From: an uncultured Prevotellaceae bacterium
GTDB taxonomy: Bacteria > Bacteroidota > Bacteroidia > Bacteroidales > Bacteroidaceae
NCBI GenBank assembly: GCA_900318995.1
Contig: ONMR01000003.1
Coordinates: 62,001 to 126,000, forward strand
Length of the DNA: 64,000 bases
Direction: 5' to 3'
The position numbers and the translations under genes were made by a program. Below are positions 46,225 to 63,298 of this stretch, piece after piece (position 1 is the first letter of the stretch; every line of letters begins with the position of its first letter). The notes under the pieces were generated by a model. That model did no database searches. It had not been told where the DNA came from and saw only the letters and a list, made by a program, of their open reading frames with translations.

Positions 46225-46252
46225 ATTTCCTGTAATCTAAAAGTTGTGAATG

Positions 46253-47057: not shown

Positions 47058-47108
47058 ATTTTACTTGTATGGGCCGATGCCCGCAAAGTTACTCATTTGG
47101 GCCGATAA

Positions 47109-47157
47109 GCACAAAATGATACCATTGGGGTCAGGCCCCATTGGTACCGTTTTGCAC
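47109..47157. repeat. GGGGTCAGGCCCC palindrome, copy 2
   Basis: The core (47127-47139) is identical to that at 43773-43785. The arms (GCACAAAATGATACCATT and ATTGGTACCGTTTTGCAC) pair with about five mismatches and share no sequence with the arms of copy 1. It lies in a divergent intergenic region, so it is not a terminator here. Confidence 0.75.
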
Positions 47158-47255
47158 AAATAAGAGATTTTCCTTGAAAGCTTTTCCCACGACTGGAGTA
47201 TATATTATATGGAGCAAGTAATCAAACAGCTTCCTGTCATGCAAATTGAATACCT

Positions 47256-48947
47256 ATGAGTGAAAAACAGATTATGACCATTACAGACGGCCTCCAGGCT
47301 ATATTTGAATATGTGGAAAAAGAAGAGCATTATTTACCACATAAAGAAACTGAGAAAGTTCGCCCCGATGCTGCATATGATTATCTCCGTCCCATACTTG
47401 ATCTTACAGACAGTCAGTTGGATCTTCTTAGCGTAATAGTTGAGCTGGCAATAGACGGGAACACTATGTCAAGCGAAGTGGCACAGTCTATGGGTTTGAC
47501 AAAGATAAAATTCCTGTCACTCAAGCCTGATCTTGATGTCCTTGCTTCAAAACGCTATATCCTCTATAATCCTGAAAAGGTCAGAAATTCGTTAATAGTG
47601 GTTCCAACAATTTTTATTGAAGCTATATCACAGAATCGCATTCCTATACCGTCCGATTTTCAGGTGCCGTCCACTATGAAATTTGCAAAGAGGTTGGATA
47701 ATGTAGTCAGTGGCTTTTTTCAGAACTACTTTGATTTTAAGACGCTTATATCAGAACTTGATATTCTGTATGCCAGCAACCAAACTTGTGAATTCGTTGA
47801 GACCTATAATCGATATGAACTGTCAGACTTAGACCCTTATGAAAAGTCTCTATTTAATTTCATGATGGGTCGATACGTATGCCGCAATGAGAATTCCTTT
47901 GTCTGGGAAGACTACTATAAGCTCTTTGAGGATAGCGAGATAGTGAATAATGTTATCTACAAAAGCATTCTGAACGGCAATTTTATACTAATGGAAAAAG
48001 GCCTCGTGGAATATGATTCCAATGGTGGTTTTACTACAAATGAAGTAATAAGACTTACGGCAAAGGCTATCAACGATTTCTTGGGTGAGACAGTTGTGTC
48101 TGCCAATACCCGCAGAAATGAAGGGAGTCAGGCATTCCGCCTAATATCCCATGATTCTCTTGAAACGAAAGACCTTTTCTTTAATAAGAAAGAACAGGAG
48201 GAAATATGCCGACTTAAGGAACTGCTTCAGAAAGAAAATTTCAAGAAAGTAACCGAACGCCTGGAAGAAAAGCACATGCGTAAAGGCTTTGTCTGCCTCT
48301 TTTATGGCCCTCCCGGTACAGGAAAGACTGCAAGTTGCTTTGATATTGCCGCAGCCACTGGACGTGACATCTACTATGTAGACATGAGTCAAGTCAAATC
48401 CAAATGGGTTGGTGATAGTGAACGTAATCTGAGCGCCCTTTTCCAGTCTTATAAAAAAGCGGTACGTGAGAGTGATTTGGCTCCAATCATGGTATGGAAT
48501 GAAGCTGACGCCATATTCGGGTGTCGCCGTACCGTTACATCGGCTGTCGACAAGATGGAAAACACAATGACTAATATAATTCTTGAGGAGCTAGAAAACC
48601 TGGAGGGGATTCTAATAGCCACGACTAATATGTCGTTGAAAGATGGTTTTGATCCCGCTATGGAACGTCGCTTCCTTATAAAGGTACATTTTGATAATCC
48701 AGAGCCGGCAATCCGAACAAGGATCTGGCATAGCATGTTCAGTGAACTTTCTGAGTCTGATGCAAAAACATTGGCCAGTGAGTTTGAATTCTCTGGTGGT
48801 TTGATAGAAAATATCAACCGTAAGGCGACAGTTGAGTATATACTCTCCGGTCAGAAACCCAGATTAGATTATCTACGTTCTCTTTGCTACGCAGAACAAA
48901 CGGAATCAAGTACACCCCGTCATATAGGTTTTAATAATAAGGAATAA
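47256..48947 (+). CDS. AAA+ ATPase with NEAD Walker B
   Basis: A 563-residue protein. The N-terminal 290 residues are helical and unassigned ('LLSVIVELAIDGNTMSSEVA' suggests a winged-helix-like part). The AAA+ core has Walker A 'FYGPPGTGKTASCFDIAAAT' (about 350), pore-like 'SQVKSKWVGDSERNLSALFQ' (about 387), Walker B 'IMVWNEADAIFG' (about 411) with Asn in place of the first Asp, sensor 'LIATTNMS' and Arg finger 'DPAMERRFLIKV'. NEAD-type AAA+ proteins are known in bacteria and are expected to hydrolyse ATP because the catalytic Glu remains. It is the first gene of the operon to 53311 and 3 bp before the ClpX-like gene. Confidence 0.83.
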   Translation: MSEKQIMTITDGLQAIFEYVEKEEHYLPHKETEKVRPDAAYDYLRPILDLTDSQLDLLSVIVELAIDGNTMSSEVAQSMGLTKIKFLSLKPDLDVLASKRYILYNPEKVRNSLIVVPTIFIEAISQNRIPIPSDFQVPSTMKFAKRLDNVVSGFFQNYFDFKTLISELDILYASNQTCEFVETYNRYELSDLDPYEKSLFNFMMGRYVCRNENSFVWEDYYKLFEDSEIVNNVIYKSILNGNFILMEKGLVEYDSNGGFTTNEVIRLTAKAINDFLGETVVSANTRRNEGSQAFRLISHDSLETKDLFFNKKEQEEICRLKELLQKENFKKVTERLEEKHMRKGFVCLFYGPPGTGKTASCFDIAAATGRDIYYVDMSQVKSKWVGDSERNLSALFQSYKKAVRESDLAPIMVWNEADAIFGCRRTVTSAVDKMENTMTNIILEELENLEGILIATTNMSLKDGFDPAMERRFLIKVHFDNPEPAIRTRIWHSMFSELSESDAKTLASEFEFSGGLIENINRKATVEYILSGQKPRLDYLRSLCYAEQTESSTPRHIGFNNKE

Positions 48948-48950
48948 AAC

Positions 48951-50066
48951 ATGGCAAACACAACAATTAGCCAATTACCGGCAGCATTAAGAAACATTCC
49001 CACACCAGCCCGTATCAAGATGGAGCTGGATAAGTATGTAGTAGGTCAGGAAGAGGCCAAGAAAACCCTATCAGTAGCCGTTTACAACCATTTCCGTCGT
49101 CTCCAGCTCATTGCTGATGGAACAGTCAAGCCCGATGATATGGGCAAGTCTAACGTACTTCTTCTTGGTCATACAGGCTGCGGAAAGACACAGCTCGTAC
49201 GCACAATCGCACGCTTTCTCAACGTCCCTTGCTACATCCAGGACTGCACCAAGATAACAGCCTCTGGTTACGTGGGTTCAGATGTGGAAGATTGTCTTGC
49301 CGGTCTTCTGCGCAACTGCAATTATGATGTTGCAAAAGCGGAGTGTGGCATAGTAATGCTTGACGAGATAGACAAGAACCGTAAAGCCGATGCAGGAGTA
49401 TCCGTCACACGTGACGTTAGTGGTGAATGCGTCCAGCAGTCCCTTCTAAAGATAGTAGAAGGTGATAAGGTCGGAGTCCCCCCAATGGGAGGTCGGAAGC
49501 ATCCTGAACAGTCACTACTGTACGTAGATACCTCCCAGATCTTATTCATAGCCAGTGGGGCCTTCACCGGCATAGATGATATCATATCTCAGCGTCTGGG
49601 GCATAATGAACGCTCCATAGGCTTTACTGGAACTACAACAAAGAAACAACGTAAGAGTAAAGAACCTCTGCTAGCCCAGTTGTTGCCCGAGGATCTCCAC
49701 AAGTATGGTATGATACCAGAGTTTGTGGGCCGTTTCCCCATCTCCACTTATGTAGAGCCGCTTGAAAAGAAAGACCTGGTCAACATCCTGACAGAACCCA
49801 AGGATGCCATAGTCAAGCAGTATCAGAACCTGCTGGCAATGGATGATATCAACCTGACCTTCACCTCTGGAGCACTTGAGGCCATTGCAGAACGCGCCCT
49901 CAAGATGGGAACCGGTGCGCGTGGCCTGCGTAACATTATGGAGCGCGTGATGCGTGACACCATGTTTGATGCCCCATCAAACAAACGTAACGGTATCCCC
50001 ACCGATGTCGTAATAACCGAATCTATGGTTCGTGAGCGCACCCGCATGTATCAGAACGTAGGATAA
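48951..50066 (+). CDS. ClpX-like AAA+ unfoldase lacking the zinc-binding domain
   Basis: A 371-residue protein. The ClpX core is unmistakable: 'LDKYVVGQEEAKKTLSVAVY', Walker A 'LLGHTGCGKTQLVRTIA' (about 72), pore-1 loop 'ASGYVGSDVED' (about 104), Walker B 'GIVMLDEIDK' (about 131), RKH loop 'GGRKHPEQS' (about 182), 'EFVGRFP' and sensor-2 'GTGARGLRNIMERV'. The IGF tripeptide that docks ClpX onto ClpP is present in 'ERSIGFTG' (about 222). The N-terminal zinc domain used for adaptor binding is absent. It is probably an accessory unfoldase with substrates specific to this operon, possibly still feeding ClpP. Confidence 0.9.
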   Translation: MANTTISQLPAALRNIPTPARIKMELDKYVVGQEEAKKTLSVAVYNHFRRLQLIADGTVKPDDMGKSNVLLLGHTGCGKTQLVRTIARFLNVPCYIQDCTKITASGYVGSDVEDCLAGLLRNCNYDVAKAECGIVMLDEIDKNRKADAGVSVTRDVSGECVQQSLLKIVEGDKVGVPPMGGRKHPEQSLLYVDTSQILFIASGAFTGIDDIISQRLGHNERSIGFTGTTTKKQRKSKEPLLAQLLPEDLHKYGMIPEFVGRFPISTYVEPLEKKDLVNILTEPKDAIVKQYQNLLAMDDINLTFTSGALEAIAERALKMGTGARGLRNIMERVMRDTMFDAPSNKRNGIPTDVVITESMVRERTRMYQNVG

Positions 50067-50079
50067 ACATTAACGTAAT

Positions 50080-50457
50080 ATGATCAGAATATTCTTTGTA
50101 ATGCTCCTGTTGCACGTTGTGACAGAGTTCGTACTTCAGCCGGTAGCGCTCCTCCGTCTTAAACAAAAGACCTACTGGGAGCAGCCTGAACACCCTAACG
50201 GGGGTAAGGATGCCAGCGCAATGGCCATAGCCATAAATGCCATCCTTTGGTCAGTAATGATAATGCTGCCCCTCATGTACTATTCAACAGAGGGTGATTT
50301 GATACTCCTCCTGGTATTCCTGGTTAATATGCTTGTTCATGCCTATATCGATGAGTATACCACCAATCGCCACAAGCTAACCTTTGTGACCGCCCAGTCC
50401 CTTTACCTCCTCCAGCTCACCATAACCTTTCTGATTACGATGATTATTAACATCTAA
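50080..50457 (+). CDS. DUF3307-type small membrane protein
   Basis: A 125-residue protein with three or four hydrophobic segments. The conserved His/Asp positions of DUF3307 are recognisable: 'LLLHVVTEFVLQP' (about 9) and 'MLVHAYIDEYTTNRHKLTF' (about 84). The family is frequent in phages and mobile elements; its activity is unknown. It is third in the operon, 13 bp after the ClpX-like gene. Confidence 0.72.
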   Translation: MIRIFFVMLLLHVVTEFVLQPVALLRLKQKTYWEQPEHPNGGKDASAMAIAINAILWSVMIMLPLMYYSTEGDLILLLVFLVNMLVHAYIDEYTTNRHKLTFVTAQSLYLLQLTITFLITMIINI

Positions 50458-50513
50458 TGAAAGGAAAAATCATTTCAATGGTATATATTTACAGAACGAA
50501 TAAATAACTCACT

Positions 50514-50714
50514 ATGTCAAGAAGTTCTATTCCTGCTGACTGGCACAACTGTGCCACATGCACTCACTGGTGCGGATACACAAAGCCTGACCCTTTCTGC
50601 AAATTCATAGAGTATGACACCTCTGATCGTGGCCGATGCGCCGGCGGCGGCTTCAACATGATGGATATGCCCCCAATGGCCACCTGTTCCAAGTGGGAAC
50701 GTAGATTCAGATAA
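50514..50714 (+). CDS. Small cysteine-rich protein
   Basis: A 66-residue protein with Cys at about positions 13, 16, 20, 29, 42 and 58 ('NCATCTHWCGYTKPDPFC'), suggesting one zinc site. It is similar in style to small zinc-binding proteins of phages. It lies in the operon between the DUF3307 gene and the ADP-ribosyltransferase-like gene. The function is unknown. Confidence 0.65.
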   Translation: MSRSSIPADWHNCATCTHWCGYTKPDPFCKFIEYDTSDRGRCAGGGFNMMDMPPMATCSKWERRFR

Positions 50715-50725
50715 TATTATAGAGT

Positions 50726-51319
50726 ATGAAAGCATATCACGGCAGCTCAGTACTGTTTGACTCATTTGATCTTGCCCACGCTCTTGAGGGTGATGGCAAG
50801 GTCAAATTCGGTTATGGCGTATATGTAACCGGCAACTATGAGTCCGCTGCACACTACGCCTTCAACAAGAAACGCCCGGAAAACAAAGACTACTACGTCT
50901 ATACGCTCACCATCCCGGACCGTACACCCGATAACTGTCTGTCACTCCTCAAAGACGTTCCAGTATGTGACTCTATCATTAAGCGCTCAGAACAGAAGCT
51001 GGGCATATCCGTTCCGGCTGAGGCAAAGATAGAAGGTATCCCGTTCCGCAAGTACCTGGCCAACCTTCTGTCCGGAGTAAACAAGCCCGTTCGTCAGATG
51101 ACAGACAAGGCCACAGTTGATGGTGAGAAAGCCGCCTCAAACTTTCTTCTCAGTATAGGAGTTGAGATGATAGAGTGGCCCCGTGATTGGAAGAAGCCCG
51201 ATGGCATCAAGAACTACGCTGTCATAGATGATGGTAAAGTACATATTGAGCGCATAGACAAGGTTGAGCTTGATGATAAGAAACATCTCATCCCAGGCTC
51301 AGAGCAACAGATCCGATAA
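50726..51319 (+). CDS. ADP-ribosyltransferase-fold protein (DUF3990/ART-PolyVal-like)
   Basis: A 197-residue protein. The N-terminus 'MKAYHGSSVLFDSFDLAHAL' carries the YHGS motif, followed by 'KFGYGVYVTGNYESAAHYAF' (about 30-49), the 'FGxGxYxT..xxxAxxYA' pattern of H-Y-type ADP-ribosyltransferases. The C-terminal 'GIKNYAVIDDGKVHIERIDK' resembles the closing strand of ART domains in phage polyvalent proteins. The family transfers ADP-ribose from NAD to protein or nucleic acid; the target here is unknown. The stop TAA shares its last base with the ATG of the NADAR gene, so the two are translationally coupled. Confidence 0.75.
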   Translation: MKAYHGSSVLFDSFDLAHALEGDGKVKFGYGVYVTGNYESAAHYAFNKKRPENKDYYVYTLTIPDRTPDNCLSLLKDVPVCDSIIKRSEQKLGISVPAEAKIEGIPFRKYLANLLSGVNKPVRQMTDKATVDGEKAASNFLLSIGVEMIEWPRDWKKPDGIKNYAVIDDGKVHIERIDKVELDDKKHLIPGSEQQIR

Positions 51320-51897
51320 TGCACGTAAGAGAGTTCATAAAGTGTTTCTTCCCTGAGTACTTTTCCTGGAATGAGTACCCGGCTGACCAGACAGTATCAT
51401 TCTGCAAGACAGACCAGGAGTGGGGCATATTCTCCAACTTCTTCCAGACTCCAATCGTGACCGATGGCGTAACCTTTCCGTGTACTGAGAGCCTGTTCCA
51501 GATCATGAAGTTCACAGACTCTGCTGCACGCCGTGATATCTTCAAACAACGTGGCCAGAAACTCAAGATGCTTGCCAAGCACTATGAGAAAACTGTAGGC
51601 GTCCGCCAGGACTGGGGCCCACTTCTGGTCCATGCACTCAAGTACTGCCTCATGCTTAAATATGAGCAAAGCCCCGCATTCCGTGCAGAGCTTGAGCGCA
51701 GTCGTGGCCATTTCATTGTAGAGGATCAGACCTCTTTCCGTAAGCCGGCCGATACCTACGGAGCAAAACTGACGCCCGATGGCAAACTCTGGTCCGGCCC
51801 CAACCTGATGGGCCGCCTTCTTATGGAACTTCGTGACAACGGCTGTCTGGATTACAACCTTCCGGACGATATCATTCAATTCAAAGACCTTATATGA
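51319..51897 (+). CDS. NADAR (YbiA-like) family protein
   Basis: A 192-residue protein. NADAR features are 'WGIFSNFFQTPIVTDGVTFP' (about 35-54), 'TESLFQIMKFTD', the 'R.DWGPLLVHALKYCLMLKY' helix and the C-terminal 'LWSGPNLMGRLLMELRDNG'. The NADAR superfamily acts on ADP-ribose-like compounds; members paired with DarT-like ADP-ribosyltransferases have been reported to remove ADP-ribose from guanine bases. Immediate coupling with the ART-like gene suggests it reverses or neutralises that activity. The start is fixed by the TAATG junction, and it overlaps the PfkB gene by 4 bp. Confidence 0.87.
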   Translation: MHVREFIKCFFPEYFSWNEYPADQTVSFCKTDQEWGIFSNFFQTPIVTDGVTFPCTESLFQIMKFTDSAARRDIFKQRGQKLKMLAKHYEKTVGVRQDWGPLLVHALKYCLMLKYEQSPAFRAELERSRGHFIVEDQTSFRKPADTYGAKLTPDGKLWSGPNLMGRLLMELRDNGCLDYNLPDDIIQFKDLI

Positions 51898-52865
51898 ACA
51901 AGACAATCATAACAACCGGTAACTTTAATCTTGATGAGATACGTTACCGTGAGTATCCTGAAGGTACAGAACATCCACGCAAGTACATAGATCATTGGGT
52001 AACCTGTGAGATAGGCGGAAATGCCGGAAACGTATCCGCCGAGCTGGCACTCATGGGCTGGAACGTCTATCCCATAACAACATTTGATGAGTCCAAACAA
52101 GGCCATTGGTGTATGGAAGACCTTGCCTTGTATGGATGTAACACACGCTTTGTCAGCTGCTCACCTAAAGGAGGTACGTTCATATTCCAGGGAACACATA
52201 ACAAGATGAATCGGGAAGGAGTGTTGAGAATGGGCGTCCGCACCTGTGGCCCCACATCAATGTTTGCCAAGCGCCATAATCTTACAGTTCGTGATGAGGC
52301 TCCTGCGCTGCTTGCATCATTGGATTTTGTACCGGATGTGTTCTTCTTTGGTTCACCCGAGGCCGGTCACCGCTATCTGGCACAAGGTCTCCGGGATCGT
52401 GGCTCAATGATTTACTATGAGATCCAGAACAAGATAGAGATGAACAAGGCCCTGCGTGAATCATTGGAAGTAGCCCACATCATCAAGATGAGCGATGCAC
52501 ATGTAACCCTGCAGCAGGCCGATGAGTTTGTCCACACCTATCCACATAAGCTCTTTATACAGACAATGGGACCGTCAGGAGTACGTTTCAGCCTTCACGG
52601 CCAGCAATGGGTAACAATCCCTGCGGTACCCGTACAGAAAGTGGCCGATACTGAAGGTGCCGGCGATGCAATGACCGCCGCCTTCATCAACGCCCTCCCG
52701 GTGCATGATGTATCCCGCCTCACAACAGACCAGGTACGCACAGCACTCAAAGTCGCCCTACAAGCCTCAGCACAGGCAATCTCCTATATCGGCGCAAAAG
52801 GTCACATCCTTAATGACCCACAATACGCCTACATAGCCCAGACCATCAGTCAGCGAATAATATGA
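51894..52865 (+). CDS. PfkB-family sugar or nucleoside kinase
   Basis: A 323-residue ribokinase-like protein. The N-terminal 'TTGNFNLDEIRYREYPEGTE' and 'EIGGNAGNVSAELALMGWNV' (GG motif, about 43) and the C-terminal 'KVADTEGAGDAMTAAFINAL' (DTxGAGD anion hole and catalytic Asp, about 252-258) define the family. The substrate is open: ribose, nucleosides and ADP-ribose breakdown products are all possible given the ART/NADAR neighbours. Both ends overlap adjacent genes by 4 bp (ATGA). Confidence 0.88.
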   Translation: MNKTIITTGNFNLDEIRYREYPEGTEHPRKYIDHWVTCEIGGNAGNVSAELALMGWNVYPITTFDESKQGHWCMEDLALYGCNTRFVSCSPKGGTFIFQGTHNKMNREGVLRMGVRTCGPTSMFAKRHNLTVRDEAPALLASLDFVPDVFFFGSPEAGHRYLAQGLRDRGSMIYYEIQNKIEMNKALRESLEVAHIIKMSDAHVTLQQADEFVHTYPHKLFIQTMGPSGVRFSLHGQQWVTIPAVPVQKVADTEGAGDAMTAAFINALPVHDVSRLTTDQVRTALKVALQASAQAISYIGAKGHILNDPQYAYIAQTISQRII

Positions 52866-53311
52866 AACAATACCAGTTTGCAGACATCCAGGCCAGGCGG
52901 TATCCCAGCATCAAGGAGATAAATGATCCCGATATCTATGGGCGCGTGGGCGTTGTCATAAACGTATCCAAGAAAGCGTATCCTGATGAGATCAAGCAAG
53001 CCTTTAAGCAATATAAGGATATCAGGCTATGGCATATTCCTCTAACCGAGAAGGGCTCTGACATGGGGCTGGAGAGTATTCCGCAATGTGTAAGGATACT
53101 TGAGGAAGCCGATAAAGCCGGCATTCCTGTAATAGTGCATTGCGGTATAGGCAGCAACCGCAGTCATCTGGTTGTGGAGTGCTACCATTACCGTAAACTG
53201 GGATTCCAACTTGAAGATCCGTACAAAGGTTGCTTTAACCGCCTTACCTACAATTGCAGCATCGGCCTGCTCCCGCCCATCACTGAGGTTGAAGAGAAGC
53301 TATTGTTTTAA
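52862..53311 (+). CDS. Dual-specificity/tyrosine phosphatase-like protein
   Basis: A 149-residue protein. The P-loop C(X)5R is clear in 'PVIVHCGIGSNRSHLVVECY' (Cys about 99, Arg about 105). A possible general-acid loop is in 'LWHIPLTEKGSDMGLESIPQ'. Such cysteine phosphatases act on phosphoproteins, nucleotides or RNA 5' ends. It is the last gene of the operon, overlapping the kinase gene by 4 bp. Kinase and phosphatase may act on a common small molecule; this is inferred. Confidence 0.83.
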   Translation: MKQYQFADIQARRYPSIKEINDPDIYGRVGVVINVSKKAYPDEIKQAFKQYKDIRLWHIPLTEKGSDMGLESIPQCVRILEEADKAGIPVIVHCGIGSNRSHLVVECYHYRKLGFQLEDPYKGCFNRLTYNCSIGLLPPITEVEEKLLF

Positions 53312-53349
53312 TCTTGAAATAAAAGTTTCTATCCATAGAATAAAAAGGA

Positions 53350-53357
53350 TATATTTG
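53350..53357 (+). promoter_or_regulatory. -7 box (TATATTTG) of ncRNA copy 1
   Basis: TATATTTG lies 3 bp before the conserved RNA block AAAAGCACCG, at the same relative place as TATCTTTG before copy 2. Confidence 0.7.
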
Positions 53358-53360
53358 CAT

Positions 53361-53548
53361 AAAAGCACCGCGAGGCTCGTCCGGTTTTTTTTGGCCGAGA
53401 TGCATATGAACAACAATATGTTTTAATAGATTCTATCCGTAGCAGTTGGGGGCCTGTAAAGGTGGGCTGTTGCTTATTTCCCCTGGGGCGGTACACCGCA
53501 AGGTGTATCGCAATCGATTAAGACGAGAATGTCAATACCTTGCCGGTG
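53361..53548 (+). ncRNA. Structured RNA associated with reverse transcriptase, copy 1
   Basis: It matches 54933-55119 over 188 nt: the first 22 bases are identical and the last 105 differ at only about eight positions, while the middle varies. Conserved elements are the 5' arm AAAAGCACCG, a hairpin CTCG-CC...GG-CGAG, the block TGGGGGC...TGTAAAGG...GGCTGTTGCTTA...CCCC, and a hairpin GCGG-TACA-CCGC. Conservation stops inside the 3' closing arm (CGGTG, then AATAG instead of CTTTT), exactly where the RT deletion begins. It has its own promoter and might still be expressed. Confidence 0.8.
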
Positions 53549-53552
53549 AATA

Positions 53553-53819
53553 GACACTGAGGCCAAGCGAATAGCCAGGACCTACTACTCAGTAATCAAT
53601 AGCAATCATCCCGAAAAGAGAATAGAACAATTCGGCAGTCTGCCAGGTCACATACGTGATTTTGAGCTGATAACCGTTGACCGCTACACCATTGCCCAGG
53701 CCAAACACCTGGACAACTATCTCAAAAAGAAAGTGGCTCTTGCCGCACATAAGAAAAACGTACCGGTACCTGCTGAACTTACATCTTATCAAATAGAGCT
53801 AACCAATGACGCAAAGTGA
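53553..53819 (+). pseudogene. Remnant of a second reverse transcriptase (last 88 codons)
   Basis: The frame from DTEAKRIARTYYSVINSNHP to ...LTSYQIELTNDAK then TGA aligns with the C-terminus of the RT at 55134 (DTEAKRIAKTYYSVIKSNHP onward) at roughly three quarters identity. About 470 N-terminal codons, including all catalytic motifs, are missing, and there is no start. The RNA copy 1 is joined almost directly to it. The divergence shows it is a paralogue rather than a fresh copy of the intact RT. Bases 53820-53899 hold no recognisable feature. Confidence 0.9.
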
Positions 53820-53899
53820 TTGATACCGGAGGATAAGGGTTTTTTGAAAGAAATCTGATGGATCATAGTATATAATAATGTGACAAATGAAAAACAACT

Positions 53900-54106
53900 A
53901 TGATCAAATTCCTGTTCAAATCAATAATAGTGGTGGCGTTGCTGCTGTTGCTCATACCACTGTTTAAACTGTTGCTTAAACTTATAAATAACGTTTTTGC
54001 AGGGTTAGGCGCGTATATGGGAACTGATGTTGATCCCCGGGGAGTAGGGGCTTTGTTCCTTATTGGTTTAGCCTTGTTACTGATAGCATTAGCAATCAAA
54101 GACTGA
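53900..54106 (+). CDS. Small hydrophobic membrane protein
   Basis: A 68-residue protein starting MIKFLFKSIIVVALLLLLIP, with two membrane spans (about 5-24 and 50-66) joined by a short Gly/Asp loop ('LGAYMGTDVDPRGVG'). It lies between the two RT-associated RNA copies and 4 bp before the next gene. The function is unknown; toxin-like or anchor roles are possible. Confidence 0.55.
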   Translation: MIKFLFKSIIVVALLLLLIPLFKLLLKLINNVFAGLGAYMGTDVDPRGVGALFLIGLALLLIALAIKD

Positions 54107-54110
54107 TATT

Positions 54111-54359
54111 ATGGGACTTTTTGAGGATATTCTGGCCGGCGCCATAGGTTATGGCATAGCATCGGCAAAAGACAGTAAGGTGGTTGGCGACATAATTGAC
54201 AACTGTGTCAAGCGCATGACCATTGAGGAGATCATTGATAATTACGCCAGACGTCATCTGGATATCTATTCATGCAACAACGATTTTGCTCACAGGCTTC
54301 ATACTATCGCCCAGCGTTATGAAGAGTATGATTATGAGAGTGTTTATGGAGAACAATAG
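54111..54359 (+). CDS. Small protein, unknown
   Basis: An 82-residue protein starting MGLFEDILAGAIGYGIASAK, with a Gly/Ala-rich N-terminus and a helical acidic/Tyr-rich C-terminus ('RLHTIAQRYEEYDYESVYGE'). It follows the small membrane protein by 4 bp and is probably cotranscribed. No family is recognised. Confidence 0.55.
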   Translation: MGLFEDILAGAIGYGIASAKDSKVVGDIIDNCVKRMTIEEIIDNYARRHLDIYSCNNDFAHRLHTIAQRYEEYDYESVYGEQ

Positions 54360-54440
54360 TCGGATGAAAGATTCTTATAAAATCATAGTATATATGTATG
54401 AAAGACAATTGAATTAAAATAACCAATAAAATCTAGACTT

Positions 54441-54893
54441 ATGAAAAATTTGAAATCAGACGTGCTTGCTAAGGCAGCATTTGTGAACACACTTGAGACA
54501 AGAGGCTTCAACGCTAAGGTGGTTAGCTCTCCTGCAGATATTAAGGCTGTGAAAGACGGCCAGGATTGGTACTTTGAGATTAAGATGACGACTCATAGAG
54601 ATCGCTATTTCGGTGCTGCTACTATGACTGAGTGGATTCAAGCACTCAAGGATCCTGAGCACTTCCGCTTCGTGGTAGCCATTGATTTGGGCGATGGTAT
54701 GTGGGAGTTTAAGGAGTATACACCTGCAGAATTTATGGAATACAGTACTATTCCACCATTTAAGGTATACTTCAATCTGGATTTTACAGGAAAGTTCCGT
54801 AAGAAGAAAAACGGCAAATCGCGTGCGGTGAGACTCACTTTGGAAAATTTCCGTCAGTTGGCCACTGTATATCTTGGGTTAAATAGGGGATAA
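54441..54893 (+). CDS. Predicted PD-(D/E)XK nuclease-like protein
   Basis: A 150-residue protein. Residues about 22-55 ('GFNAKVVSSPADIKAVKDGQ' followed by DWYFEIKMTTH) show the D...ExK pattern of the PD-(D/E)XK fold, similar in style to restriction-like domains that protect or cleave DNA. The C-terminal half is aromatic and basic ('FNLDFTGKFRKKKNGKSRAV'). It ends 28 bp before the promoter of RNA copy 2. A nuclease activity is inferred from this short motif alone. Confidence 0.55.
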   Translation: MKNLKSDVLAKAAFVNTLETRGFNAKVVSSPADIKAVKDGQDWYFEIKMTTHRDRYFGAATMTEWIQALKDPEHFRFVVAIDLGDGMWEFKEYTPAEFMEYSTIPPFKVYFNLDFTGKFRKKKNGKSRAVRLTLENFRQLATVYLGLNRG

Positions 54894-54921
54894 AAATCAT
54901 CCCCTTTGTCACCAATTTTTA

Positions 54922-54929
54922 TATCTTTG
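54922..54929 (+). promoter_or_regulatory. -7 box (TATCTTTG) of ncRNA copy 2
   Basis: TATCTTTG fits TAnnTTTG and ends 3 bp before the conserved RNA block at 54933. A TTTG occurs at 54905-54908. Confidence 0.65.
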
Positions 54930-54932
54930 TGC

Positions 54933-55124
54933 AAAAGCACCGCGAGGCTCGTCCATTTTTTGGGTCGAGATGCATGTAACAAAACGATTTTTTGAATTAT
55001 TCTATCCGCAACATGTTGGGGGCTTGTAAAGGTTGGCTGTTGCTTAATTACCCCTGTGGCGGTACGCCGCAAAGTGTATCGCAATCGATTAAGACGAGAA
55101 TGTCAATACCTTGCCGGTGCTTTT
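54933..55124 (+). ncRNA. Structured RNA upstream of the reverse transcriptase, copy 2 (intact)
   Basis: The 5' end AAAAGCACCG (54933-54942) is perfectly complementary to CGGTGCTTTT (55115-55124), closing an RNA of about 192 nt, followed by a T-rich stretch TTTTTCTTTTTG. Inside are a CTCG/CGAG hairpin, a GGGG...CCCC long-range pairing option and the hairpin GCGG-TACG-CCGC; the base that differs from copy 1 lies in its loop. A promoter box precedes it. The layout (RNA closed by a terminal stem, then RT 10 bp later) resembles the template RNAs of retrons and of DRT-type defence RTs. The sequence belongs to no RNA family I recognise. Confidence 0.82.
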
Positions 55125-55133
55125 TCTTTTTGC

Positions 55134-56801
55134 ATGAGAGAGTTCAAAAGCATATGCGATTACGCAACTGATGACGTGATTATCCGCCTCCTTGCCAAGG
55201 AACGCGGAAAGTTCACAGCCAAGAATGGCCGCAAGCGCGAGAGCCACGAGCAGCTCTATCAGGAGCAGCTCAAACCCATGATGCCACCTCGTGCCATTTG
55301 GACCAACCCGGGTAAGAGCCGTCGTCCGCAGTCAGGCAAGAACCTTCACGGACTGGCCGCATGGACCGGTAAGAAACGTATGGGTAAGGCGCGTGTCTAC
55401 ATTACCATATGCAAGGAACTGTCTCGTGGAAATAATGACCCTTGGGCTGTCAATCTCAGAGCTTTTATCCAGCGCATCCAAGAGATACTGAACGGAACTC
55501 TTGAACTCAAAATTGAAAAACCGGAAATCATAGCCAAGTTCAAGGAGCAGGAGAGTCAGACCGGACATCTCATTTATCGGCCCATAAGCGCGTACCGCAG
55601 TCTTGAGACCAAGATCCTGGTATCATTGGCCTACAACTATCTGCTCTATTATTTTGACGGTTGTTTCCACAGCAACATGCTCTTTATGCGCTCGGCACGC
55701 AAGGACCGGGAGGGAAGATGGAAAACGCCGAACTATCTTGACGCCATAAGGTTGGCCGATGCTTATCGCCGCAAACATGACCGCGAGAACATATACGTGG
55801 GCGAGTGCGATATCCAGAAGTTTTACGACATATTCAACCACGACGACATACTGGAGTGCTTTGAGGAACTCTTCAAAATTAAGAAAGCCCATGACCCCAA
55901 GATTCAGGATATAGCGTTTGACCCTATCCGCCGCCTCATCAAGGCCTATCTGGATTCATACGACTACAAGAAGGATGTCATAGGCAAGAATGATGACCCC
56001 GAGTTCTGGCTCAAAGAAAAGCAGATACACGCTACGCCCGATAATCCCAATCCTATCTGCCGGTTCAAGTGGGTAAAGCCCGAGGCGTTCCTTGAGTCCG
56101 GGTGCTATGCATCGGACGCGGAGTTCCAGCAGGCTTGCAACGAGGGAAAGATTGGCGTACCGCAGGGCGGTGCGCTCTCCGGAATGATAGTCAACGTAGT
56201 CATGAATGTGATAGACAGCGGTATAGTTGACCCCAAAGATCCGGGTCGTTTCTTTGTGCGTTACTGTGATGACATACTGCTAATGCACACCGATAAATGC
56301 AAATGCGAGCAGTATCTGGACTACTATGAAAAGGCGTTGACTCAGCACAAACTTATACCTCACAAGATGGAGTATGTGAGCCAGATAAAGAACGGAGCAA
56401 AGACAACGCCCCGATTCTGGCACGCCAAATCCAAACACGTTTATCTGTGGGGCAGAGGAGCTGACGATGCATCGGATTGGGTTGGATTTGTGGGCTTTGA
56501 GATGCGCCGCACAGGCGAGATCCGCGTACGCAAGGACAAGATCGACACTGAGGCCAAGCGAATAGCCAAGACCTATTACTCAGTAATTAAGAGCAACCAC
56601 CCCGAGAAGCGTATTGAGCAGTTCGGCAATCTGCCAGGCCACATACGCGACTACGAGCTCATAACTGTTGACCGATATACGATTGCGCAGGCCAAGCACC
56701 TGGACAACTACCTGAACCGCAAGGTCGCTCAGGCAGCCCGCAAAACCGGAACACCTGTTCCCAAAGGTTTTACTTCATATCAACAGGAACTCAAAAGATG
56801 A
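55134..56801 (+). CDS. Reverse transcriptase of unassigned type
   Basis: A 555-residue protein starting MREFKSICDYATDDVIIRLL. The frame extends upstream into the RNA gene (GTG 55056), but ATG 55134 directly after the RNA is preferred. RT motifs are 'YRPISAYRSLETKILVSLAY' (about 145), motif A 'ECDIQKFYDIFNHDDI' (Asp about 226), motif B 'GVPQGGALSGMIVNVVMN' (about 342), motif C 'FVRYCDDILLMH' (YCDD 377-380) and motif E 'WVGFVGFEMRRTGEIRVRK' (about 443). A helical thumb-like C-terminus follows. I see no retron NAxxH or VTG motif, no DGR-type motif and no maturase or endonuclease domain. It could be a defence-type 'unknown group' RT. Confidence 0.88.
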   Translation: MREFKSICDYATDDVIIRLLAKERGKFTAKNGRKRESHEQLYQEQLKPMMPPRAIWTNPGKSRRPQSGKNLHGLAAWTGKKRMGKARVYITICKELSRGNNDPWAVNLRAFIQRIQEILNGTLELKIEKPEIIAKFKEQESQTGHLIYRPISAYRSLETKILVSLAYNYLLYYFDGCFHSNMLFMRSARKDREGRWKTPNYLDAIRLADAYRRKHDRENIYVGECDIQKFYDIFNHDDILECFEELFKIKKAHDPKIQDIAFDPIRRLIKAYLDSYDYKKDVIGKNDDPEFWLKEKQIHATPDNPNPICRFKWVKPEAFLESGCYASDAEFQQACNEGKIGVPQGGALSGMIVNVVMNVIDSGIVDPKDPGRFFVRYCDDILLMHTDKCKCEQYLDYYEKALTQHKLIPHKMEYVSQIKNGAKTTPRFWHAKSKHVYLWGRGADDASDWVGFVGFEMRRTGEIRVRKDKIDTEAKRIAKTYYSVIKSNHPEKRIEQFGNLPGHIRDYELITVDRYTIAQAKHLDNYLNRKVAQAARKTGTPVPKGFTSYQQELKR

Positions 56802-56856
56802 CGAATGAGGCTGTCCCCCTCTCCTCCTTTGATACGTGTAAAAAAAACATGATATT

Positions 56857-57642
56857 ATGAATGAAAATGATTTGGTTAGAAAAAAAGAGTTGACTGCGTT
56901 ATTGCGCATACTGTCATCAAATGAATTTGATGTAGAGTATAAAATTTGTGATATTTTAGATCGGGCATTGGTAAAAATACTGGGTAAGACAGTCGAAGAT
57001 ACTTTATTTACCTTTAATAGTTTACGCGTTACATATGGCGTTTCTTACGAGGCAGATGGTACTTTGGTTACATCATATAGACTATATCAGAATGATAAAG
57101 AACTCATTAAAACAGATCGCCAATATCCTCAGGATGTGATTGATTTTGATGAAGAAACATTGGTTTTTCTTCTTAGTAGTAATCTTTCTTATAACCTTTA
57201 TATGTGTTTTGTGGGTGAAATAATAGTTAATTGCGTTAAGGATTTAAGTGATTATTATATCGCTAAATACGAAGGTTTTGAATTGACTGATATCCTTATT
57301 AAAGGTCAGGAAAAAATGACCGATCATCTGCATTATATGATAAATCATGATATGATAAAACCTGATTTTAAGAATCATGATATGAGACTCAAGGTAGATT
57401 TAGGTAGGGAGGTGACAGTTAGTGTCTCAATTTATGATGTAGGAACCTGGCCTTATAGGTATTATTTGTTTTATTCGTTGAGTATTGACAATAAAGAGTA
57501 TGGTTCTGGACAAGCACAGTTTAACTGTACTAATGATAAACTGAAGGATTCTGATACCATAAGGGAAATTAACAATATGGCATATCTTTCTATGTTAGGC
57601 CGTTGGTGGTGTGTTTGTTGCGAAAATAGGGTGTCAAACTGA
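56857..57642 (+). CDS. Unrecognised AT-rich orphan
   Basis: A 261-residue protein starting MNENDLVRKKELTALLRILS, soluble, with mixed helices and strands ('LRVTYGVSYEADGTLVTSYR', 'VTVSVSIYDVGTWPYRYYLF'). No motif is recognised. Its base composition is visibly more AT-rich than the RT and sbcD genes on either side, suggesting recent acquisition. It is 55 bp after the RT and could be an accessory protein of it. Confidence 0.6.
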   Translation: MNENDLVRKKELTALLRILSSNEFDVEYKICDILDRALVKILGKTVEDTLFTFNSLRVTYGVSYEADGTLVTSYRLYQNDKELIKTDRQYPQDVIDFDEETLVFLLSSNLSYNLYMCFVGEIIVNCVKDLSDYYIAKYEGFELTDILIKGQEKMTDHLHYMINHDMIKPDFKNHDMRLKVDLGREVTVSVSIYDVGTWPYRYYLFYSLSIDNKEYGSGQAQFNCTNDKLKDSDTIREINNMAYLSMLGRWWCVCCENRVSN

Positions 57643-57718
57643 ACCGTCCACTTTGGCACCTTGAAAGAAAAACTGAGATCTCCAGTATATAATGAATGGA
57701 AGATAAAAACTGAGAAAC

Positions 57719-58990
57719 ATGAGAATTATCACAACCGGCGATTGGCATTTAGGCAACCTGTTTCATGGAAACGACAGGTTACAGGAACACATCCACTTCC
57801 TTAAGTGGCTTGAAAACACAATTGTAGATCAGCAGCCCGACGCACTGCTCATAGCAGGCGACGTGTTTGACAACGGCAACCCGTCGGCTGCCGCACAGAC
57901 CGCATACTATGACTTCCTGGCTAAGATCACAAAGACTTGCCCTGAACTGCAGATAGTAATAACTGCCGGCAACCATGATTCTGCCAGTCGTTTGGAGGCG
58001 CCACGCCCTTTGTTGTCGCGTTACAATGTCGAGATTCGCGGCAATCTTAAGCGCCGTTGGGTAACAGATAAAGACGGTGGACATTGGGAATTTGAGTATG
58101 ACGACCTGCTCATACCTATAAAAGACAAGCAGGGCAACCAGGCCATAGTAATAGCCGTACCCTATCTCAGGAACGACGTAGTCCAGAACGCAAGTTACTC
58201 GGATGGCGTAAACCAGATATTGCGCGACCTCACCACCAGAGCTCATGAACTCTATCCTAACACCCCAACAGTAATGATGGCCCATATGTACGCCAAGGGA
58301 GCCGATATAGCTAAAACCGATGCCAGCGAGCGAATCATCGTTGGCGGCCAGGAGGAGGTCGATATGGGCGGTTGGGTTGACCATCCCGATTACCTGACCT
58401 GCGGTCACATCCATAAGCGCCAGCACATCTGGAATACAGACTGGGCTCGATATACCGGCAGCGTGCTGCCCATGTCATTCGCCGAGGTCAATTATCAGCA
58501 CGGTGTTGATCTGGTAACCATTGACTCCAAGCACAAACCCAAAGTGGCATTCCTGGAATATGAGCCTCAGCACAAACTGCGCATATTGCCGGCTGATGAC
58601 CAGGAACTCACTCCAAAGAAAATGGAAAAACTCCTCAAGGATGAACTGCGTGAGAGGGTGGATGGCAAACTCAGCGACCATTATGATTACCTGCTGCTCA
58701 AGGTAAAACTTGAGAAATTTGATGGTGACCAACTGGCCGCCCTTTACGAACAGATAGCTCAGATGGACGCCATACTTTGCAAAATGCAGAAGATTGTGCC
58801 CATACTGGACCTGACCACCATCCGTGGTAATCAGCAGATAACAAGCGTCAACGATATCCTGGAGCGTGACCCAATGGAGACTCTCAAGGAGACCTTTGCA
58901 ATAAAGCATGGCGCCGATATGACCGAGCATCAGGAACAGATGCTCAAAGATCTCTTAGATAACGTAAACATTAACGATAATCAGGACTGA
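57719..58990 (+). CDS. sbcD: SbcD nuclease subunit
   Basis: A 423-residue Mre11-type calcineurin-like phosphoesterase. Metal-binding motifs appear in order: 'GDWHLGNLF' (DxH, 7-15), 'LLIAGDVFDNGNPS' (GD, about 43), 'ITAGNHDSASRL' (GNHD, about 83), 'VMMAHMYAKG' (His, about 190) and 'LTCGHIHKRQ' (GHxH, about 225). With SbcC it processes hairpins, palindromes and protein-blocked DNA ends. It ends 2 bp before sbcC. Confidence 0.93.
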   Translation: MRIITTGDWHLGNLFHGNDRLQEHIHFLKWLENTIVDQQPDALLIAGDVFDNGNPSAAAQTAYYDFLAKITKTCPELQIVITAGNHDSASRLEAPRPLLSRYNVEIRGNLKRRWVTDKDGGHWEFEYDDLLIPIKDKQGNQAIVIAVPYLRNDVVQNASYSDGVNQILRDLTTRAHELYPNTPTVMMAHMYAKGADIAKTDASERIIVGGQEEVDMGGWVDHPDYLTCGHIHKRQHIWNTDWARYTGSVLPMSFAEVNYQHGVDLVTIDSKHKPKVAFLEYEPQHKLRILPADDQELTPKKMEKLLKDELRERVDGKLSDHYDYLLLKVKLEKFDGDQLAALYEQIAQMDAILCKMQKIVPILDLTTIRGNQQITSVNDILERDPMETLKETFAIKHGADMTEHQEQMLKDLLDNVNINDNQD

Positions 58991-58992
58991 CC

Positions 58993-61900
58993 ATGAAATT
59001 CCTTAGACTTGAAATTCTGAACCTTGCATCACTTGACCGCAAGGAGGGTGAGATAATCGATTTTGAGCACGGTGCTCTTGGTGAGAGCAACATATTCTCA
59101 ATAGTAGGACCTACCGGCAGCGGAAAGTCCACCATCCTGGATGCCATCTGTCTGGCATTGTACAACCGTGCCCCGCGCTATCCCAAGAAGAAGGGTGAGC
59201 GCAATCAGTCAATTGAGATATACGGTACTCCCGATGAAGGCGAGAGTGCACGTTTGGCTCCGACCGACTGCCGCAACATCCTTACACGCGGTAAGAAAAA
59301 CGGCTATAGCAAACTCACTTTCATGGCCAACAATGGCAAAATATACAGGGCCGAGTGGAGCGTAAAGTTACTTCGTATTAGGTATGACGATGCCATAACA
59401 GTACTCTATGAGATTGATGCCAGTGGTAATGAGAAACAGGTTAATTGGAATGATCTACCCACAATCATAGGACTGGAGTATGACCAGTTCTTGAGCACCG
59501 TACTTATAGCTCAGGGATCATTCTCTAAGTTTATATTGGCCAAGGAGAACGAGCGCTATGAACTGCTTGAGAAACTTATTGGCTGTGAGGAACTCTACGC
59601 CAATATAGCCCGTGAAATCAAACAGCGCAAAGAGGCTGCCGCTGCCGAGTATGCCCGGATTGAGGCCAGTTGCTCAGCCTACGCGAATGACATAATAGAG
59701 ACTGCCGAATTGGCGGAACTCAAAAAGCGTATTGCTGAACTTGAGGAAGAGGATATAAAGGTCAAGGCAGAACTCCTCAAGGTGTCCACTGCTCTAACCT
59801 GGTTTAAGACCGAGGGTGAATACAATGTTAACATTGCAAATTACACCCATGCTCAGGCCGAAGCCAAGAAAGCCCTGGATGATGCAAAGGAACTTTTTGA
59901 TAAACTTGCAATGCATGACTCCATGCTCCCCGCAACATCAAAACTCAAGGAGATAAGAGACTTGGAAGGCAACATCAGTAGACTTGAGAAAGAACTAACA
60001 GGACTTGAGCCTAAGATTGAGGGCAAGAATGCTGAAATAAAAAAGGCCGAAGGTGAACTCAGTGAACTTAAGAAGTCAGCAGCCGATGCTGCAACTGCCT
60101 TGGAAACTAAGAAACCGCACATAAACAGGGCGCGCACCATCAAAGGCCAGTTGCAGGCTGCCAAAGAAGCCGTAACTGATAAACAGAAGGCAAAGAATAC
60201 TGCTTCTGATGCCTTTGAGGGAGCCAAAAAGGCACTTGAGCAGAACGGTGCCGATATCGCAAATGCCCAGAAGAAATTGGATGCTGCAACAAAAGCATAC
60301 AATGAGCTCAAGGAAGCTGTTGATATGACCAAGCAGGAGTATCAGAAGAAAGTCCTGAATGCTGTCAATGCATTCAATGCTGAGGCTACTACGATTGAAG
60401 AACTTGATTTGACCAAGTTGCAGAACGCCAAGAGTCTGGCCGAACAGAAGAAGAATGACATAAAATATGGCATCCGCATCCGTAAGGATATAGATACTAA
60501 TCAGCGCACTCTTGATAATAACCAGAAAGAGAAAGAGCGTCTTGAAAATCGCAACCAGGAGATCCGGAAGGAGTTGGCAACACTTACAATTGATGATCTG
60601 ACTAAGGAGTTGGAGACTCTGCGTAAGAGCCATACCCTTATGACAAGTGAGAAATGGTCACAGCACCGTCACGACCTTGAAGACGGCAAGCCTTGTCCGC
60701 TTTGCGGTTCAACTAATCATCCGTACAAGGATGATCATGAACTTGAAACCGTCACTTCCGGTTTGCAGCAGATTATTGATACAAAGCAGGATATCCTGAA
60801 TAAGCAGACCGAACGTCAGAACACTCTTACCAGAGAGCAGGCACAGAATACTGGCAAACTTGAAGGATTTAATATCCCGGCTCTTACGGAGCAACTGGCC
60901 GCACTAAATGTGGAGTGGGATAAACTGCACGCTAAATATCCCGAATGGCCCACATCAGTTCAGGAACTCGAGGGTCTCAAACCTGTCATTGAGACTGAGT
61001 CAAAACAGGCAGGAATTGCGTTGACGGCATACAATGAGCTTGTAGGATACAATGATTCGTCAGAACGCCAACTGCGTGAGGCCGAATCCAAGAAGACCCA
61101 GGCAGACACCACACTCAAGACCGAACAGGGTAAGACCGAAAATCTCAAGAATCAGAAAACTGAGAAAGAGACTGCTCTTAGCAAAGCGACTCAGGAACTG
61201 ACAACTGCTCAGGAAGACGTCAATAAGATACTTGCCGCCATAAAGGCCGAGATAGGCGATAGGGATCCCGACACCTTTGAGCAGGAACTCACCAAAGCCA
61301 AGACTGCAGCAGATAATGCAGTAAACGGTAAGAATGAATACATTGGTAATCTTAATATTGAGCTGAAGGGTTTCAAAACCCAGAAGGAAAATGACTCAAA
61401 GTCCAAGGAAGAATATTCCGGTAAACTGACTGACAATCGCAATCAACTGGCTGCCTTGATAACTGATTACAATACAAAGAAAGGTGCTGCCCTTACTGAA
61501 GCCGATATCAGCATGCTGCTCGATGCCACCGATTACTGGGATGATATCCGTCAGCGTCAGACCCGCCTTAATGAAACACTCACAAGGGCTAATACAACAT
61601 TGGACAATGAGGTTAAGGCTCATGAAAAGCATCAGGCAGGCAAACCGGCTGAGTCTGAGGATGACCTCAAGGCTAAGAAGGCTGAACTTGAGGGCAAGAA
61701 CAACAATGAACTCGTTGAGGCTCAGACGCGTCTGAACCGTCATAATACCGCACAGACTAACCTGGGTGCGCTGGCCGGCCAGAAACAGGATGCCGAAATG
61801 CTCAAGAAAGAGTGGGATGAGATATATGACGCCATTGGTGCCGACGGCAAGACCCTGCGTAAGATTGCCCAGTGCTATACGCTGCGTTTCCTTATTGAGC

Positions 61901-62316: not shown

Positions 62317-62347
62317 AAAAACTGCCGGCTCCGGAAGGAGTCGGCAG
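62315..62347 (-). terminator. Intrinsic terminator of the sigma-factor gene
   Basis: CTGCCGGCTCC (62322-62332) and GGAGTCGGCAG (62337-62347) form an 11-bp stem with one mismatch, followed on the minus strand by seven Ts. It lies between convergent sbcC and sigma-factor genes. Confidence 0.88.
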
Positions 62348-62356
62348 TACGCGGTG

Positions 62357-63001: not shown

Positions 63002-63221
63002 GTTTTTCTGTTTTAGATGAACCCAGCAGAATACCCTGCCGGCTGGTTTGAGATTCGTTTCTCGAAAAAACAAATCGCTTGAATCTCATATTTCGTAAAA
63101 CAGAAAGCAGTCTGAAAAACGGCGTTTCTTTGCCACCGCTGTGGCAACCGCGGAAATACAAATATATGCCAAAAACTTGAAACTGCCAAATTTTCAAGTG
63201 GTTATTTATCTTGTTTTGGTT

Positions 63222-63253: not shown

Positions 63254-63298
63254 TACATATTGTATAATGTGTAACCTTTCTGCAAAACTCAACCAATT

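What the first reader, a model, noticed from the sequence alone, without database searches (positions are those of the whole stretch)
53350..56801. Reverse transcriptase with a duplicated, promoter-driven structured RNA: candidate undescribed RT/ncRNA system
Two copies of an RNA of about 190 nt (53361-53548 and 54933-55124) each sit 3 bp behind a TAnnTTTG box. The intact copy is closed by a perfect 10-bp terminal stem (AAAAGCACCG with CGGTGCTTTT), contains conserved hairpins, and is followed 10 bp later by a 555-aa RT with QGG and YCDD motifs. Retrons and DRT2/DRT9-type defence RTs are known to use an upstream ncRNA as template; this RT lacks retron and DGR hallmarks that I can see. The RNA is conserved between paralogous units, so it is under selection.
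Basis: partly seen in the sequence, partly recalled or inferred. Interest (0 to 1): 0.88.

Follow-up and report, generated by a model that had tools for sequence, protein, structure and literature searches.

The report
Reverse transcriptase with its partner RNA
A bacterium related to rumen species carries a little-studied reverse transcriptase gene with a folded RNA directly in front of it, and the same pairing recurs in distant relatives, which suggests another bacterial system that makes DNA from a built-in RNA, probably to resist viruses.

Summary
A 555-aa reverse transcriptase (RT) follows a ~190-nt RNA closed by a 10-bp stem. A second copy of the unit lies upstream, but its RT has lost all but its C-terminal end. 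The RT belongs to PADLOC group RT_UG39 (4e-103); no paper found by name characterises that group. At all 17 UG39-type loci examined, an RNA of 131-212 nt closed by a 9-16-bp stem ends 3-20 nt before the RT; 16 were shuffle-tested (combined p about 6e-17). Between the two copies the RNA differs at 26 of 191 columns, the RT remnant at 44 of 87 third codon positions, so the RNA was under selection. By fold the closest solved relatives are DRT9 structures. A Ser/Thr near the C terminus is kept in 13 of 13 aligned RTs and is a candidate primer. Best reading: an uncharacterised ncRNA-templated, protein-primed antiviral RT system. The template was not identified: the DRT10-type A-B-A' test failed, and DRT9, DRT3 and DRT2 template signatures were not found. 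The core branch, not the window's, also carries an adjacent stand-alone primase. Templating, priming and antiphage function are inferred.

The parts
54922..54929 (+). Bacteroidota-type -7 promoter box TATCTTTG (box name recalled), 3 nt before the RNA
   Evidence: a strict TAnnTTTG lies within 21 nt of the RNA in all 6 RNAs of the window's RT branch, 7 of 18 RNAs overall; background about 0.8% per 15 nt
54933..55124 (+). ncRNA, copy 2 (intact)
   Evidence: 192 nt, closed by a terminal stem
54933..54942 (+). terminal stem P0, 5' arm (pairs with 55115-55124)
   Evidence: two pairs with changes on both sides versus RUG10916
55115..55124 (+). terminal stem P0, 3' arm, followed by a T-rich run up to the RT start (terminator-like)
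54948..54969 (+). hairpin H1 (CTCG..CGAG); alternative partner of CTCGTC is GACGAG (55094-55099)
   Evidence: H1 by RNAalifold; the alternative was counted, where its 6 pairs never vary in 3 sequences, so it is untested
55008..55054 (+). candidate H-type pseudoknot: P1 55008-55013/55038-55043, P2 55018-55021/55051-55054
   Evidence: P1: two pairs with changes on both sides. P2 has no compensatory change; single-sequence pseudoknot scan not significant
55059..55082 (+). hairpin H4 (GCAA in the loop of both copies; only partly kept in RUG10916)
55083..55108 (+). segment identical in both copies and at 22 of 26 bases in RUG10916; candidate template loop (inference)
   Evidence: position by analogy with DRT9/DRT10/DRT3 template loops. 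In the fold counted six of its 26 bases pair (GACGAG); RNAalifold instead puts three pairs inside it
55134..56801 (+). reverse transcriptase, RT_UG39 group, 555 aa; C-terminal S548-Y549 candidate priming site
53350..53357 (+). -7 promoter box TATATTTG of copy 1
53361..53548 (+). ncRNA, copy 1, 3' arm of the terminal stem truncated
53549..53801 (+). C-terminal remnant of a deleted second RT
   Evidence: differences by codon position 10/12/44 of 87 each

Best explanation
It is a two-part RT-ncRNA module of the UG39 group, of the DRT2/DRT9/DRT10 kind. The RNA is transcribed from its own promoter and folds into a closed scaffold. The RT binds it and repeatedly copies a short template, probably in the conserved segment just before the 3' arm of the terminal stem, into repetitive cDNA. 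The cDNA is primed by a hydroxyl residue at the RT's own C terminus, and the product acts in antiphage defence. Shown here: the recurring RNA-RT linkage, selection on the RNA, its fold in outline, and the RT's group and nearest relatives. Inferred: transcription, RNA binding, templating, priming, repeat product and defence. The window carries a duplicated unit, one copy of which has lost most of its RT.
For: RT_UG39 4e-103, next family UG17/DRT10 9e-14; the 10 relatives then scanned have UG39 best at 342-680 bits. UG39 is one clade, 100/100, with the window's branch 99/97. Terminal stem at 17 of 17 loci: 13 of the 16 shuffle-tested have p<=0.02, the other three 0.04-0.06, combined p 6e-17. Of 115 long-ORF starts, at least nine of them these RTs, the nine strongest stems are at UG39 RTs; one other ORF (L016) ties with the weakest two of the nine. 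Selection on the RNA, p 2e-10. P0 and P1 have two pairs each with compensatory changes (93% of cells paired, 4 of 500 shuffles as high; RNAalifold agrees on both). Foldseek: DRT9 structures are the first four hits, 3e-13 to 1e-11, though with TM-scores of only 0.45-0.54. Ser/Thr at position 548 in 13 of 13 and Tyr at 549 in 12 of 13 aligned RTs, four broken RTs left out; C-terminal Ser/Tyr prime DRT10 (PMC12632851, introduction and results read). The class 2 systems studied so far use cis ncRNA templates (PMC13174585, passages).
Against: No expression, cDNA or phage data. Template not found: the A-B-A' test is not significant for any RNA against dinucleotide shuffles (p 0.09-0.97; summed over 17 RNAs against single-base shuffles p 0.046). 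No conserved poly-U, no ACACAC, no unusual open frame. The pseudoknot is not significant in any single-sequence scan and is not the best solution in copy 2. The covariation rests on three sequences, two of them paralogues. Membership of 'class 2' rests on HMM and fold similarity; no DRT9 or DRT10 RT is in the tree. Group II intron RTs score nearly as well as DRT9 by fold (3e-11), and best in two sequence searches of solved structures.
Confidence: 0.72

Rival explanations
1. The RNA is a structured leader or attenuator that regulates RT expression in cis (terminator-like end just before the ATG) and is not a template.
For: The 3' arm is followed by a T-rich run and the RT starts 9 nt later; at all 17 loci the RNA ends 3-20 nt before the RT.
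Against: Selection over the whole RNA, a candidate pseudoknot and a conserved 3' segment exceed what an attenuator needs; the solved relatives DRT9 and DRT2 are complexes with their ncRNA.
Confidence: 0.13
2. The RNA is a template, but the product is one long cDNA or a DRT2-like concatemer that encodes a protein.
For: The three DRT2 RTs met here have UG39 among their next-best families (best after the Drt2 models in two of three); copy 2 has 53 open codons on the cDNA strand.
Against: Stop-free length is not unusual in any of 18 RNAs (lowest p 0.15, single-base shuffles) and falls to 32 codons in RUG10916.
Confidence: 0.15
3. A retron or diversity-generating retroelement.
For: RT next to a structured RNA.
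Against: Retron models score 28 bits or less against cut-offs of 235-450; UG39 scores 344 bits. A variable-repeat target gene was not searched for systematically.
Confidence: 0.02

Closest known systems
DRT9 (UG28)
   Same: RT plus ncRNA; top Foldseek hits; conserved tyrosines in a C-terminal loop
   Different: No conserved poly-U template; separate PADLOC model (344 versus 33 bits)
DRT10 (UG17)
   Same: Next-best PADLOC family of the window RT; RNA with a large central stem, smaller stem-loops and a loop template; C-terminal Ser/Tyr priming
   Different: Six window ORFs near the RT gave no SLATT match in Pfam; A-B-A' not detected
DRT2 (UG2)
   Same: Neighbouring RNA with a pseudoknot; UG39 among the next-best families of three DRT2 RTs
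   Different: RNA 192 versus 280 nt; no unusual stop-free frame; a C-terminal priming candidate, where DRT2 uses the ncRNA 3' end
UG28b of myRT (PMC8934634, passages)
   Same: Clade split from UG28; 45-46% co-occur with VirE_N; here 8 of 17 UG39 loci carry a protein of the BT4734-like_N kind next to the RNA (Pfam run on 3 of the 8)
   Different: 'ncrna' does not occur in that paper's main text; the window's branch (0 of 5) lacks the primase

Membership tests
RT_UG39 (PADLOC) | Best match to the UG39 profile over most of its length | tested here: met
   4e-103, 344 bits, profile 4-435 of 541; next family 49 bits. The window's branch scores 342-352, the six core members scanned 562-680, so it is a divergent branch
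RT_UG39 (PADLOC) | Monophyly with core UG39 RTs | tested here: met
   15 rows, support 100/100; L020 and L046 left out as broken, truncated L048 and L052 kept in
Class 2 DRT | cis-encoded conserved ncRNA | tested here: met
   Terminal-stem RNA at 17 of 17 loci examined; transcription not shown
Class 2 DRT | ncRNA-templated repeat cDNA | not testable with these tools
   needs cDNA sequencing
Class 2 DRT | Antiphage activity | not testable with these tools
   context only: patchy distribution (3 of 399 family genomes) and restriction or defence-like genes on the same contig in RUG10916
DRT9 | Conserved poly-U template | tested here: not met
   Longest U run in the last 60 nt of the interior is 2-5 in 17 of 18 RNAs, 7 in one
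DRT10 | A-B-A' pattern in the template loop | tested here: inconclusive
   Not above dinucleotide shuffles per RNA; summed p 0.046 against single-base shuffles; the loop boundary was not known
DRT10 | Adjacent SLATT protein | tested here: inconclusive
   No SLATT match among window ORFs 50726-51316, 51319-51894, 52862-53308, 54111-54356, 54441-54890 and 56857-57639; other window ORFs not scanned with Pfam
DRT3 | ACACAC template | tested here: not met
   Absent from 18 of 18 RNAs
DRT2 | Stop-free frame across the template cDNA | tested here: not met
   Not above shuffles in any of 18 RNAs
Retron | Retron RT profile at cut-off | tested here: not met
   28 bits against a cut-off of 235, 12.6 against 450

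The most novel reading that the evidence does not exclude
UG39 is a further ncRNA-templated DNA-writing defence group, and its core branch pairs the RT with a stand-alone archaeo-eukaryotic-type primase (BT4734-like_N, with PriCT_2; motif DID kept in 8 of 8) that makes the second strand of the RT's repetitive cDNA. The window's branch would be a primase-free form that stops at single-stranded product. It would be RNA-templated first strand plus primase second strand from separate genes, between DRT3 (two RTs) and DRT7 (RT-primase fusion).
Probability: 0.18. Interest if true: 0.8.

Novelty: new variant of a known kind. Interest (0 to 1): 0.62.

Why it matters
The RT-ncRNA defence groups described so far make different DNA products (a de novo gene, poly-dA, tandem repeats, alternating repeats), and one has been linked to the origin of telomerase. 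UG39 lies near them, has a closed RNA before the RT at 17 of 17 loci examined, a candidate priming residue and, in its core branch, a primase partner. That makes its product and priming directly testable in a laboratory E. coli or Bacteroides strain. It also gives a further test of whether pseudoknotted RNAs are general to these RTs.

Tried and rejected
A-B-A' template search over the last 40 nt before the 3' arm: not significant. By-eye candidates (AAU-GUC-AAU in the window; CGAUU-CGAUU in L019/L052) are noted only as leads. DRT9, DRT3 and DRT2 template signatures: not found. Pseudoknot scan of single sequences: p~0.05-0.95 over 18 RNAs, the lowest (L018) with a different arrangement. Shared words in the last 60 nt: TCAGTAT in 5 of 16 RNAs, 0 of 400 shuffles as high; ATCGATT in 3 of 16 (window, L016, L019; L052, which also has it, was left out of that count), not beyond the shuffles. 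Over the whole interior the same word test is weaker (7-mers p 0.04, 8-mers p 0.025). Solo RNA copies: only the two in the window's genome; a covariance model was not built. Viral contigs: no relative with the window RT, four weak fragments with the alignment, not followed. Phage records: none with the window RT, one 23%-identity partial match with a core RT. Plasmids: one, Thiospirochaeta. DRT9 and UG17 RTs for an outgroup: none at 1e-60 in 128 and 99 genomes, with no control genome ringing, so this is no evidence of absence. Rows dropped: weak UG39-profile hits G586, G896 and G963 are DRT2 and G883 is not UG39; G663 (84 bits) was not followed; L020, L046, L048 and L052 were left out of alignment A1 because their RT frames are broken or cut. 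The low-scoring matches (seven genomes, 19-23 bits) are other RTs, of which L003, L004, L006, L009, L011 and L013 served as outgroups.
Full report
OBSERVATION. Copy 2 of the RNA is window 54933-55124, 3 nt behind TATCTTTG (54922-54929), closed by AAAAGCACCG/CGGTGCTTTT, and followed after 9 nt by a 555-aa RT (55134-56801). Copy 1 is 53361-53548 behind TATATTTG, 86% identical. Copy 1 runs directly into a remnant of the RT's C terminus (residues 468-553, 80% identical, one TGA in the matched stretch). So it is a unit with an internal deletion that removed most of the RT and half of the 3' arm of the terminal stem. The held genome (87% complete) has no third copy.

SELECTION. The remnant differs from the intact RT at 10, 12 and 44 of 87 first, second and third codon positions. 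Both units therefore diverged mostly while both RTs were constrained, and copy 1 lost its RT later (inference from the pattern). Over the same split the RNA differs at 26 of 191 aligned columns, far less than third positions (Fisher p 2e-10). The segment 55083-55108 is identical between the copies.

THE RT. PADLOC gives RT_UG39 at 4e-103 (344 bits); the next is UG17/DRT10 at 49 bits. Retron models are far below their cut-offs. UG39 RTs are rare and patchy. Matches at 1e-20 were found in 3 of 399 genomes of the family, 6 of 393 of the order, 7 of 395 of the class, 6 of 395 of the phylum and 1 of 44 of G187's genus, the window's own genome counted in all but the last. Of these, G586, G896 and G963 proved to be DRT2, G883 not UG39, and G663 was not followed. 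[quoted passage not shown] The window's RT forms a branch (99/97) with those of RUG10916 (L016), UBA1769 (L017), RGIG9489 (L018) and G187 (L038) (the program warns of long branches among the outgroups). Three DRT2 RTs met in passing have UG39 among their next-best families. The AlphaFold model (pLDDT 88.5) finds DRT9 structures as its first four Foldseek hits, then group II intron RTs close behind, then DRT2; TM-scores are modest, 0.45-0.54 for the DRT9 hits. By sequence alone group II intron RTs are the best solved matches, followed by DRT2 and DRT9 for the alignment and by DRT9 for L051.

THE RNA RECURS. Upstream of all 17 UG39-type RTs examined lies a 131-212-nt segment closed by a 9-16-bp stem that ends 3-20 nt before the RT start. 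Sixteen were tested against 300 dinucleotide shuffles each: 13 have p<=0.02, the others (L041, L047, L049) 0.04-0.06, combined p 6e-17 (RUG10916 and the window are related, so the 16 are not fully independent; L046 was found later and not shuffle-tested). Of 115 long-ORF starts in 16 of these and other loci, at least nine of them UG39 RTs, the nine strongest stems are at UG39 RTs, and one other ORF in L016 ties with the two weakest of the nine. The stem sequences differ widely between loci. A strict TAnnTTTG box lies within 21 nt upstream in 7 of 18 RNAs, including all six of the window's branch. In six core loci (L039, L040, L041, L046, L047, L050) the RNA instead overlaps or directly follows an upstream gene. 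No Rfam family reaches its cut-off in the window or in 15 of the 16 other loci (L020 not searched); a 1.9-kb permissive search gave one chance-level snoRNA match outside the RNA copies.

FOLD. For copy 2, copy 1 and RUG10916 the proposed fold pairs 93% of cells (4 of 500 shuffles as high), against 39-54% when partners are slid. Four pairs change on both sides (15 of 500 shuffles as high), two in the terminal stem P0 and two in P1. The fold as counted includes six invariant pairs CUCGUC/GACGAG, which say nothing either way. RNAalifold on its own finds P0, P1 and H4, and pairs CUCG into hairpin H1 instead. P1 with P2 (GGGG/CCCC) would make an H-type pseudoknot, but P2 shows no compensatory change, and a pseudoknot scan of single RNAs is not significant in any of 18 and prefers another solution in copy 2. 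It is a candidate only. DRT2's RNA is pseudoknotted (PMC12039810, passages). The segment 55083-55108, between hairpin H4 and the 3' arm, is 22 of 26 identical in RUG10916; six of its bases pair in the fold counted, and RNAalifold puts three pairs inside it. It sits where DRT9, DRT10 and DRT3 RNAs keep their templates (PMC12632851, introduction and results read; PMC13174585, passages).

TEMPLATE NOT FOUND. A-B-A' repeats over the last 40 nt are not above dinucleotide shuffles in any RNA; the sum over 17 is p 0.046 against single-base shuffles. No conserved poly-U, no ACACAC, no unusual open frame. A word TCAGTAT is shared by 5 of 16 RNAs, all in the core branch (0 of 400 shuffles). The product is therefore unknown.

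PRIMING CANDIDATE. In the 13-row alignment position 548 is Ser in 12 and Thr in 1, and position 549 is Tyr in 12 and Phe in 1; four of the 17 RTs were left out as broken. DRT10 primes from a C-terminal Ser or Tyr, and DRT9's C-terminal loop carries conserved tyrosines (PMC12489045, passages).

NEIGHBOURS. Eight of 17 loci, none of the five in the window's branch, carry next to the RNA a protein of about 330-360 aa. Three of the eight were run in Pfam: all match BT4734-like_N and two match PriCT_2 above cut-off. A DID motif is invariant in 8 of 8. The BT4734-like family is listed among archaeo-eukaryotic primases (PMC5862659, passages). In six loci it is upstream on the same strand, in two (L048, L051) divergent. 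The myRT paper reports VirE_N next to 45-46% of its UG28b class, split from UG28/DRT9 (PMC8934634, passages); I infer that UG28b is core UG39. Three loci (L019, L049, L051) share an ATPase gene; AAA_15 in L019 and L049, OLD-like TOPRIM in L019 only, L051's copy not run in Pfam. The window and RUG10916 have SbcD- and SbcC-like genes (named by eye) near the RT; SbcD reaches 1e-50 in only 3 of 37 genomes of the genus, and the two contigs are collinear only over the first 32 kb of the window's contig, so the region looks accessory.

VERDICT. A real, apparently uncharacterised group of the RT-ncRNA defence kind. Linkage, selection and outline fold are shown; transcription, templating, priming and defence are inferred. 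On checking, the confidence was lowered from 0.74 to 0.72 because solved group II intron RTs outscore DRT9 by sequence. Literature limits: UG39 and UG28b were searched by name, DRT systems by terms, DRT11 and BT4734 with RT. One paper names DRT2, DRT3 and DRT9 as the groups with ncRNA, citing Mestre 2022; that work is not held, so an earlier prediction of this RNA there cannot be excluded. The review PMC13213688 was read in its first part.

Noticed in passing
window 50726-51897; L018 3431-4631; L038 6666-7412: A NADAR protein lies within about 4 kb of three of the five RTs of the window's branch, beside an ART/DUF3990-like protein (below the Pfam cut-off) in two of them.
   Followed up: partly
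window 57719-62316; L016: SbcD- and SbcC-like genes (named by eye) near the RT; SbcD reaches 1e-50 in only 3 of 37 genomes of the genus; the SbcC-like protein matches PADLOC LmuB at 1.9e-24.
   Followed up: partly
L019, L049, L051, L052: Other UG39 loci also sit beside ABC-type ATPase genes, with an OLD-like TOPRIM in L019, and in L052 SbcD/SbcC-like genes downstream recognised by eye.
   Followed up: partly
L073 (G021 contig C10, 100-107 kb), L074, L045: Defence-like genes on the same contigs: REase_II-like, Vsr, PDC-M33A and PDC-S06/PrrC-like AAA proteins; L045 also ends in IS21-like istA/istB genes, recognised by eye.
   Followed up: partly
L043, L054, L055, L006: Three DRT2 RTs and a UG27 RT found with the UG39 profile or the RT search; UG39 is the best family after the Drt2 models in L043 and L054, and RT_UG17 in L055.
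   Followed up: partly
window 55084-55090; L016; L019; L052: The word AUCGAUU follows the last hairpin in RNAs whose RTs are only about 26% identical (window and L019); not beyond shuffles as a word count.
   Followed up: partly
L019: A 3.5-kb contig filed under Wenzhouxiangella carries a UG39 RT close to that of L052 in a genome of the window's phylum (G1478), possibly a binning error.
   Followed up: no
window about 44000-64000: G+C falls from about 0.50-0.52 at 38-44 kb to 0.43-0.48 beyond about 44 kb, where the accessory region may begin.
   Followed up: partly
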